This document shows positions 41,485-42,250 of a stretch of DNA of 64,000 nt, piece by piece. The DNA lies in NCBI RefSeq assembly GCF_003999195.1, contig NZ_RJVR01000258.1, positions 1 to 64,000 on the forward strand, written 5' to 3'. The notes beneath the pieces are model-generated. The model saw only the letters and a list, made by a program, of their open reading frames with translations. It was not told the DNA's origin and ran no database searches. The translations under genes were made by a program, and so were the position numbers. Numbering within the stretch: the first letter of the stretch is position 1; each line of letters starts with the position of its first letter. This DNA is from Streptomyces soli (lineage in GTDB: Bacteria > Actinomycetota > Actinomycetes > Streptomycetales > Streptomycetaceae).

Positions 41485-41503
41485 TGTCAACTCGCGGTTG
41501 ACA
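41485..41503. promoter_or_regulatory. Operator 1 of the HTH-ClpN gene
   Basis: TGTCAAC-N5-GTTGACA is a perfect 7-bp inverted repeat. The right arm contains the -35 hexamer TTGACA (41498-41503) of the downstream gene. Confidence 0.85.
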
Positions 41504-41513
41504 GTTGGGTGAC

Positions 41514-41532
41514 TGTCAACCTAGCGTTGACA
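41514..41532. promoter_or_regulatory. Operator 2 and -10 region of the HTH-ClpN gene
   Basis: A second perfect TGTCAAC-N5-GTTGACA repeat, centred 29 bp from the first. It contains the -10 box TAGCGT (41522-41527), 18 bp from the -35, and ends one base before the ATG. Transcription should start at or very near the ATG. Confidence 0.85.
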
Positions 41533-41533
41533 C

Positions 41534-42250
41534 ATGACGCAGCCCATACGGCTCGATGACCTCATCGACGCCATCAAGAAAGTCCACTCCGACGCCCTCG
41601 AGCAGCTTTCCGACGCCGTCATCGCCGCCGACCACCTCGGCGACGTCGCCGACCACCTGATCGGCCACTTCGTGGACCAGGCACGGCGTTCCGGCGCGTC
41701 CTGGACCGAGATCGGCCGGAGCATGGGCGTCACCCGCCAGGCCGCCCAGAAGCGTTTCGTCCCGAAGGACCCCGGCGAGCCCTCGGACCTCGACCCCAGC
41801 CAGGGCTTCAGCCGCTTCACCAAGCGGGCCCGAAACGTGGTCATGGCCGCACACGAGGAAGCCCGTACAGCAGCCAATCCCGAGGTCCGCCCCGAACACC
41901 TCGCCCTCGGCCTCCTCAGCGAGCCGGAGGCACTGGCCGCAGCGGCCATCGTCGCCCGGGGCGTCCCCCTGGAAACCGTCCGCCAGGCCGTCACCGCCGC
42001 GCTCCCCCCTGCGGCCGACGAGGTGCCCGGGCTCATCCCGTACGACCAGGGCGCACGCAAGGTCCTGGAACTCACCTTCCGCGAGGCCCTGCGCATGGGC
42101 CACAACTTCATCGGCACCGAGCACATCCTGCTCGCCCTCCTGGAGCTCGAGGACGGCACCGGCGTCCTCACCGGCCTCGGCATCGACAAGGCGACCGCCG
42201 AAGCCAACATCGCCGGCTCCCTGGCCGCCGGCCGTGAGCAGAAGCAGTGA
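41534..42250 (+). CDS. HTH regulator with two Clp N-terminal repeats
   Basis: The product is 238 aa. Residues about 45-75 contain a helix-turn-helix (SGASWTEIGRSMGVTRQAAQKRF). Residues about 95-160 and 165-230 are two Clp-N repeats (FTKRARNVVMAAHEEAR, VRPEHLALGLLSEPEA; GARKVLELTFREALRMG, IGTEHILLALLELEDG), the substrate/adaptor-binding module of ClpC and ClpA. There is no ATPase domain. It could be a transcription factor controlled by or delivered to Clp. Twin identical operators cover its own promoter, so autoregulation is probable. The transcript is predicted leaderless. Its end overlaps the convergent phosphotransferase pseudogene by about 80 bp. Confidence 0.85.
   Translation: MTQPIRLDDLIDAIKKVHSDALEQLSDAVIAADHLGDVADHLIGHFVDQARRSGASWTEIGRSMGVTRQAAQKRFVPKDPGEPSDLDPSQGFSRFTKRARNVVMAAHEEARTAANPEVRPEHLALGLLSEPEALAAAAIVARGVPLETVRQAVTAALPPAADEVPGLIPYDQGARKVLELTFREALRMGHNFIGTEHILLALLELEDGTGVLTGLGIDKATAEANIAGSLAAGREQKQ

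What the first reader, a model, noticed from the sequence alone, without database searches (positions are those of the whole stretch)
41485..42250. HTH-ClpN regulator with twin operators on -35 and -10 and a leaderless start
Two perfect TGTCAAC-N5-GTTGACA repeats contain the -35 and -10 hexamers, and the ATG is at the expected first transcribed base. The protein combines a DNA-binding helix-turn-helix with two Clp-N repeats but no ATPase. This suggests a compact switch in which the repressor is sensed or removed by Clp proteolysis, possibly a little-described type of proteostasis circuit.
Basis: partly seen in the sequence, partly recalled or inferred. Interest (0 to 1): 0.75.

Follow-up and report, generated by a model that had tools for sequence, protein, structure and literature searches.

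The report
ClpC2-type self-repressor with twin operators
This gene is a relative of a known mycobacterial self-repressor that senses molecules attacking the Clp protease, and following its DNA sites uncovers a wider, mostly undescribed family of switches built on the same DNA-reading module, including one fused to the front end of ClpX.

Summary
In detail: two perfect TGTCAAC-N5-GTTGACA sites 29 bp apart carry -35 and -10, the ATG is at the expected +1, and the 238-aa protein is an HTH plus two Clp_N repeats without ATPase.

The circuit is known: this is an orthologue of mycobacterial ClpC2 (2023), an autorepressor with the same twin operators and inferred leaderless start, released when cyclomarin A binds Clp_N, not by proteolysis.

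Beyond the paper: (1) all 29 members found in 35 congeners, and 27 of 29 further class loci, have twin operators. (2) The N-terminal HTH, rather than the published Clp_N arginines, most likely reads DNA: the 8ADA fragment stops before the recognition helix, and Lys73-to-Gln accompanies changed operators. (3) The twin-site DNA pattern alone leads to this HTH at 84 of 94 sites, attached to Clp_N, the ClpX zinc finger, DUF3887 or RheA-like partners. A shorter-spaced version leads to split HTH/Clp_N gene pairs. In a protein-led test, 74 of 79 ClpX-zinc-finger-HTH genes carry the operator, against 1 of 625 control windows.

The parts
41485..41503 (+). operator 1, TGTCAAC-N5-GTTGACA
   Evidence: perfect palindrome; conserved in all 29 members found in 35 congeners
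41498..41503 (+). putative -35 TTGACA inside operator 1
   Evidence: sequence; 18-bp spacer to the -10
41514..41532 (+). operator 2, TGTCAAC-N5-GTTGACA
   Evidence: perfect palindrome; 29 bp from operator 1 (28/29 bp in relatives)
41522..41527 (+). putative -10 TAGCGT inside operator 2
   Evidence: middle of operator 2 is TA in 64 of 64 Clp_N-class twin sites, mixed in operator 1
41534..42250 (+). ClpC2-type gene, 238 aa, ATG at the expected +1
   Evidence: ORF; best solved relatives are ClpC2 chains
41534..41773 (+). N-terminal dimerisation/HTH domain, residues 1-80
   Evidence: 8ADA match, residues 3-66; profile match to the ClpX-zinc-finger-HTH and RheA-like families
41735..41758 (+). predicted DNA-recognition helix, residues 68-75 (K73 at 41750-41752)
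   Evidence: aligned to helix 112-119 of the ClpX-zinc-finger-HTH model; residue 73 covaries with the operator
41849..42004 (+). Clp_N repeat 1
   Evidence: Pfam PF02861
42077..42205 (+). Clp_N repeat 2
   Evidence: Pfam PF02861

Best explanation
The gene encodes a ClpC2-type autorepressor. Dimers formed through the N-terminal domain bind each palindrome with their HTH, so that two dimers cover -35 and -10 and keep a leaderless promoter off (operator binding and occupancy of both sites are shown for mycobacterial ClpC2, inferred here). The C-terminal double Clp_N domain imitates the N-domain of the ClpC1 unfoldase. When it binds a ClpC1-targeting cyclic peptide or an unfolded or adaptor-like client, the repressor leaves DNA, the protein accumulates and acts as a sponge or holdase that spares ClpC1 (shown in mycobacteria for cyclomarin A; the natural ligand here is unknown). 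Sequence reading lies in the N-terminal HTH, with K73 setting the outer dinucleotide of the half-site (inferred from covariation); the Clp_N arginines would support binding or couple ligand to release. The same HTH and operator grammar serve a wider set of switches that differ in sensor domain.
For: Same protein architecture and closest solved relatives are ClpC2. Same operator, twin arrangement, promoter overlap and inferred leaderless start as published for ClpC2. Twin sites in all 29 members found in 35 congeners and in 27 of 29 further class loci. TA of the -10 in 64 of 64 second operators. HTH reading: partners without Clp_N have the same operator grammar; recognition-helix/operator covariation (K73 all-AC 57 of 59, Q73 0 of 5); the 8ADA chain ends before the helix; [quoted passage not shown] Three of four cyclomarin contacts named in the paper are identical here.
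Against: No experiment in this organism. The mycobacterial double mutant of the Clp_N arginines binds DNA less well and derepresses about 2-fold. The isolated C-terminal domain and the dimerisation mutant were tested there, but the isolated N-terminal domain is not mentioned in the passages I read. Q73 proteins represent only about two independent changes. One contact residue differs (Y170 for F172), and ilamycin and ecumicin bind Mtb ClpC2 without inducing it, so ligand response cannot be assumed. The window protein alone could not be modelled (pLDDT 43).
Confidence: 0.85

Rival explanations
1. ClpC2 as published, but the operator is read by the Clp_N domain (Mtb R185/R189, here R183/R187), and the N-terminal domain only dimerises.
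For: EMSA of the double-arginine mutant and 2-fold derepression in vivo; R183 invariant and R187 nearly invariant among 25 aligned members.
Against: HTH proteins without Clp_N share the operator grammar; Clp_N members with one arginine replaced keep twin sites (four R/D, one S/R; 55 of 64 R/R; four not parsed); helix residue 73 covaries with the operator; mycobacterial ClpC1 shows little specificity for the operator.
Confidence: 0.1
2. The repressor is removed by ClpC/ClpP proteolysis under stress.
For: Presence of the Clp_N fold only; mild heat induction in mycobacteria, for which the authors suggest stresses affecting ClpC2 stability.
Against: The published trigger is ligand binding, after which ClpC2 accumulates instead of disappearing. 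No degradation evidence was found in the passages read.
Confidence: 0.04
3. The palindromes belong to another regulator and this gene is only a target.
For: A few ClpC2-type twin sites stand before other genes with no HTH ORF (L125, L126, L141).
Against: Pull-down, EMSA and reporter data for the mycobacterial orthologue; 84 of 94 examined twin sites lie before a gene or operon that encodes this HTH.
Confidence: 0.01

Closest known systems
Mycobacterial ClpC2 (Rv2667 and M. smegmatis), Taylor 2023, PMC10030653 (abstract, sections 7, 11, 13 and passages read)
   Same: Domain order, operator CGTCAAC-n5-GTTGACG, twin sites over -35/-10, inferred leaderless start, no ATPase
   Different: Operator ends TGTCAAC/GTTGACA instead of CGTCAAC/GTTGACG; Y170 for F172 at the cyclomarin site; ligand and function untested here; no Streptomyces among the seven organisms named in the paper's operator alignment legend
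RelI antitoxins and DUF3887/DUF2812 fusions (PMC13284704, passages read)
   Same: HTH domain related to the ClpC2 N-terminus, as those authors noted
   Different: No Clp_N; the authors found no inverted repeats upstream of the Mtb operon, whereas one related operon here (L110) has twin sites
RheA, thermosensor repressor of hsp18 (PMC11754652, passages read; operator sequence recalled, not seen; no deposited RheA sequence compared)
   Same: RheA-like genes here lie divergent from an HSP20-type gene and have GTCATC/GATGAC twin sites; HTH profile match prob 95.9
   Different: No Clp_N, different C-terminal region
Streptomyces ClpC2 of the Clp-ATPase literature (PMC9765437 passages; PMC12607617 abstract start in a listing)
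   Same: Name only
   Different: That ClpC2 works as a Clp-ATPase with ClpP1P2; the window protein has no ATPase domain

Membership tests
ClpC2 autorepressor | N-terminal domain homologous to 8ADA followed by a ClpC1-type double Clp_N | tested here: met
ClpC2 autorepressor | No AAA+ ATPase module | tested here: met
   238 aa, only Clp_N above cut-off in Pfam
ClpC2 autorepressor | YGTCAAC-N5-GTTGACR one or two bases before the ORF, often twice, over -35/-10 | tested here: met
ClpC2 autorepressor | Binds its operator and represses itself | not testable with these tools
   needs EMSA and a reporter
ClpC2 autorepressor | Binds cyclomarin A through Q94, F96, F172, E181 (Mtb numbering) | tested here: inconclusive
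   Q90, F92, E179 identical, Y170 for F172; binding not testable
RheA | Divergent hsp18-type target gene | tested here: not met
   The listed ORFs around the window gene show no HSP20-type gene by eye (not scanned one by one); the protein carries Clp_N
RelI antitoxin | Short HTH protein encoded next to a RelS/BrnT-like toxin | tested here: not met
   238 aa with Clp_N; no short toxin-like partner noted among the listed neighbouring ORFs (by eye)
Clp-ATPase (ClpC) | Two AAA+ modules | tested here: not met

The most novel reading that the evidence does not exclude
ClpC2 is one branch of a large, mostly undescribed family of self-repressed switches that share one dimeric HTH reading TGTCA-NN-N4/5-NN-TGACA, often twice over -35/-10 and often with a leaderless start, while the sensor is exchanged: the ClpC N-domain (fused, or as a separate gene in the same operon), the ClpX zinc-binding N-domain, DUF3887, RheA-type thermosensors and RelI-type antitoxins. 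By analogy, the ClpX-zinc-finger-HTH proteins would be decoy-sensors guarding ClpX as ClpC2 guards ClpC1, and one helix position (K73 in ClpC2) would largely set the operator code.
Probability: 0.6. Interest if true: 0.8.

Novelty: new member of a known kind. Interest (0 to 1): 0.58.

Why it matters
The window gene itself is a further ClpC2. What it opens matters more. ClpC2 is discussed as a rescue mechanism against ClpC1-targeting antibiotics, and where it touches DNA decides how ligands release it; the comparative evidence moves that site to an N-terminal helix missing from the published crystal fragment. A ClpX counterpart, seen here in named actinomycetes and in metagenome bins labelled Acidimicrobiia, Alphaproteobacteria and Myxococcales, suggests that bacteria use copies of Clp substrate-docking domains as sensors of Clp-directed attack or proteotoxic load. 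Operator prediction from one helix residue makes the family directly testable.

Tried and rejected
One search read minus-strand loci in the wrong orientation; one search replaces it. Single-sequence structure prediction of the window protein: mean pLDDT 43, not used. Fold search of the ClpX-zinc-finger-HTH model: clear matches only for the ClpX zinc-binding domain (2ds5-2ds8 and 1ovx, 58-59% identity, prob 1.00, E 0.004-0.04; a ClpX-ClpP model at 6e-4). Fis-like hits for the HTH half are weak (E 0.68 and above, prob about 0.2 or less) and not used; 8ADA is not among the 50 rows shown. PDB sequence search with the RheA-like profile puts ClpC2 8ADA and RelI only at E 0.16-0.17, behind unrelated chains at 0.003; the RheA link therefore rests on profile comparison, gene arrangement and operators. 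NCBIfam: only unfoldase models far below cut-off. The exact operator with 2 mismatches in the own genome gives 8 forward hits including the two here against 3 control hits, so no wider regulon of this protein is claimed. L011 and L061-L064 were chance or very weak HTH matches and were dropped. Twin sites L072, L096, L111, L119 have no HTH ORF within 100 nt and are treated as probable chance; they stay in the count of 94. Not examined: one of 95 twin sites (G011:C67) and 13 of 30 N8 sites. A search for the RheA operator sequence in print found only unrelated papers. Paper searches showed no paper on a ClpX-zinc-finger-HTH regulator, on ClpC2 together with RheA, or on the two-gene HTH/Clp_N form (I saw listings only); most subscription papers are not in that library.

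Full report
OBSERVATION. The two palindromes, the embedded -35 (41498-41503) and -10 (41522-41527), the 18-bp spacer and the ATG at 41534 are as described. They are the only matches in the window within three mismatches and the only perfect copies in the 9.4 Mb genome. The ORF 41534-42250 (238 aa) matches Pfam Clp_N twice and nothing else above cut-off. It begins 54 bases after the stop of the upstream ORF.

IDENTITY. Sequence search of solved structures gives ClpC2 chains first: 9p2p 1.3e-56, 8ad9 4.2e-44, and 8ada for the N-terminal domain 5.8e-30. Taylor et al. 2023 (PMC10030653; I read the abstract, sections 7, 11 and 13, and passages) show for mycobacterial ClpC2: dimerisation by the N-terminal domain; cyclomarin A binding to Clp_N; EMSA binding to its operator; a conserved CGTCAAC-n5-GTTGACG one to two nucleotides before the ORF; a second site in many species, the two together overlapping -35 and -10; an inferred leaderless transcript; autorepression lifted by cyclomarin A; and sponge-like protection of ClpC1. 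The window gene has this promoter and protein layout, so I take it as an orthologue and the circuit as known. Nat Commun 2026 (PMC12913811, passages) adds that ilamycin and ecumicin analogues bind Mtb ClpC2 but do not induce it. In Streptomyces papers 'ClpC2' names a Clp-ATPase working with ClpP1P2 (PMC9765437 passages; PMC12607617 start of abstract in a listing): a name clash.

CONSERVATION. In 35 congeneric genomes including the own one, 29 have a full-length member (28 besides the window, E below 1e-59); the six without one are G015 (71% complete), G021, G022, G031, G032 and G034. All 29 have two sites, each with at most one mismatch to YGTCAAY-N5-RTTGACR, 28 or 29 bp apart, with one base before the ATG; L026 also shows a weak overlapping third match. 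In a class-wide sample 46 of 148 genomes (own included) match at E 1e-30 or better; a few of these are paralogue-type or doubtful matches. Of the 29 loci fetched from that search besides the own one, 27 have two or more sites within two mismatches each (25 with 28/29 bp spacing and a 1-2 nt gap, two with 23 bp and 6 nt), and two have one recognisable site 29-31 nt from the ATG. In 64 Clp_N-class twin sites the middle of operator 2 is TA in 64 of 64, that of operator 1 is mixed, which places the -10 inside operator 2.

DNA-LED SEARCH. I then searched by DNA alone for GTCA-N9-TGAC-N10..13-GTCA-N9-TGAC. It occurs at 42 sites in 29 of 35 congeners and 55 sites in 45 of 148 class genomes (the own genome with two sites is in both), with no hit of the reversed control pattern. 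Of 95 distinct sites 94 were examined. At 81 an ORF with the ClpC2-type HTH starts within 100 nt. At three more (L095, L110, L134) a downstream gene has it, and these three are the only hits among 1443 other ORFs of the same loci. Ten sites have no such ORF: L072, L092, L096, L109, L111, L119, L125, L126, L137, L141.

SENSORS. Of the 81, 64 carry Clp_N. Seven carry the ClpX C4 zinc finger (Pfam E 9e-18 for L053; 6.9e-16 for L097; the others by the CxxC motif and alignment). Six are RheA-like, and the five inspected all lie divergent from the same type of small heat-shock gene (HSP20 confirmed by Pfam on one). Two are DUF3887-type (Pfam checked on a third, L050). Two have C-terminal regions without a Pfam match. 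'RheA-like' rests on gene arrangement as described in PMC11754652 (passages), on an operator recalled from memory, and on the profile match; I compared no deposited RheA sequence. A one-base-shorter pattern (N8) finds 30 sites in 21 of 35 congeners, again with no control hits. Of 17 examined (15 fetched with that search plus L041 and L043 fetched earlier), 14 are a small HTH gene followed by a separate Clp_N gene, one is another HTH gene and two have neither. The own genome holds, besides the window gene, a fused paralogue with CGTCAAT-N5-ATTGACG operators (L006) and one split pair (L008/L267).

CLPX COUNTERPART, PROTEIN-LED. CxxC...CxxC is present in 80 of 80. GTCARG-N5-CYTGAC lies within 180 nt upstream in 74 of 79 (one locus too short), against 1 of 625 control windows; a looser form is present in 77 of 79 and at least twice in 65. 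Spacing is more variable than in ClpC2 (18-42 bp; twin sites 26-31 bp apart within two mismatches in 33 of 80), and many starts lie 10 or more bases after the second site, so these are often not leaderless in the ClpC2 manner. The predicted structure (mean pLDDT 83, pTM 0.52) matches ClpX zinc-binding domain structures in its first part.

WHICH DOMAIN READS DNA. Taylor et al. propose Clp_N arginines 185/189. Four facts here point to the N-terminal HTH. (i) Proteins with no Clp_N use the same operator grammar. (ii) The 8ADA chain ends at the residue equivalent to V66, just before the predicted recognition helix 68-75, so the crystallised four-helix fragment could not show it. (iii) The operator's outer dinucleotide follows the helix (half-sites): QKR/QKK with AC in 234 of 236; QQR in Clp_N proteins with AC 7, AT 9, AG 4 of 20; WER (ClpX class) with GG 18 or AG 10 of 28; FQR/QQR in the DUF and other class with AG in 15 of 16; ENR/ERR (RheA-like) with TC 14, CC 8, TG 2 of 24. 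In the protein-led ClpX set the dinucleotides are GG 220, AG 25, GC 1. Counted by protein, K73 has all AC in 57 of 59 and Q73 in 0 of 5 (Fisher p 2.8e-6, but only about two independent changes, so the p-value overstates). (iv) Clp_N members with one of the two arginines replaced keep twin sites (four R/D, one S/R; 55 R/R; four of 64 not parsed). Against this, the double-arginine mutant binds less well, so a supporting or coupling role for Clp_N remains. That the ClpC2 N-terminus contains an HTH-like region was already noted by the RelS-RelI authors (PMC13284704, passages), who also list DUF3887 and DUF2812 fusions of RelI homologues. The operators of these partners, the ClpX class, the split class and the RheA link are not in the passages I saw.

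MECHANISM. Shown in mycobacteria: dimer, operator binding, autorepression, release by cyclomarin. Shown here by sequence: the same promoter-operator layout, its conservation, and the covariation. Inferred: leaderless mRNA, two dimers on two sites in this organism, HTH reading, and a natural ligand of the ClpC1-N-domain type. Three of four cyclomarin contacts named in the paper are identical (Q90, F92, E179) and F172 is Y170 (mapped by hand; residues).

VERDICT. The window gene is a new member of a known kind; the proteolysis-removal idea has no support in what I saw. The most novel reading is the wider family with exchangeable Clp sensors and a one-residue operator code. Searches listed no paper describing it in the held library.

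Noticed in passing
L110 (unnamed class genome G085), around 1500-1544: Twin sites 3 nt before the GTG of a DUF4258-like gene (below Pfam cut-off) with a RelI-like HTH gene behind it: a RelS-RelI-type toxin-antitoxin operon that does have operators, unlike the Mtb one as published.
   Followed up: partly
L125 and L126 (G061, G126), L141 (G096): ClpC2-type twin boxes before other genes: FAD-monooxygenase-like genes in two genomes of one genus, and a methyltransferase-like gene with a GTG right after the box (by eye). These genomes also have a ClpC2 gene, so its regulon may sometimes be wider.
   Followed up: partly
L047, L048, L049: Stand-alone Clp_N proteins of about 326-334 aa with a TGTCAATAC...GTATTGACA palindrome just before the start (seen in L047 and L049), opposite another gene; perhaps a further sensor type with a different repressor.
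   Followed up: no
L095 and L134: Twin sites directly before a small membrane-protein gene with an HTH gene behind it.
   Followed up: partly
L036 (G004): Natural K73Q-type change in an otherwise typical ClpC2, with a degenerated operator 1 and an intact operator 2.
   Followed up: yes
PDB 9p2p, 9p39, 9p4h: Three solved entries of a ClpC2 Clp_N domain closer to the window protein than the Mtb one; organism and paper not shown by the tool.
   Followed up: no
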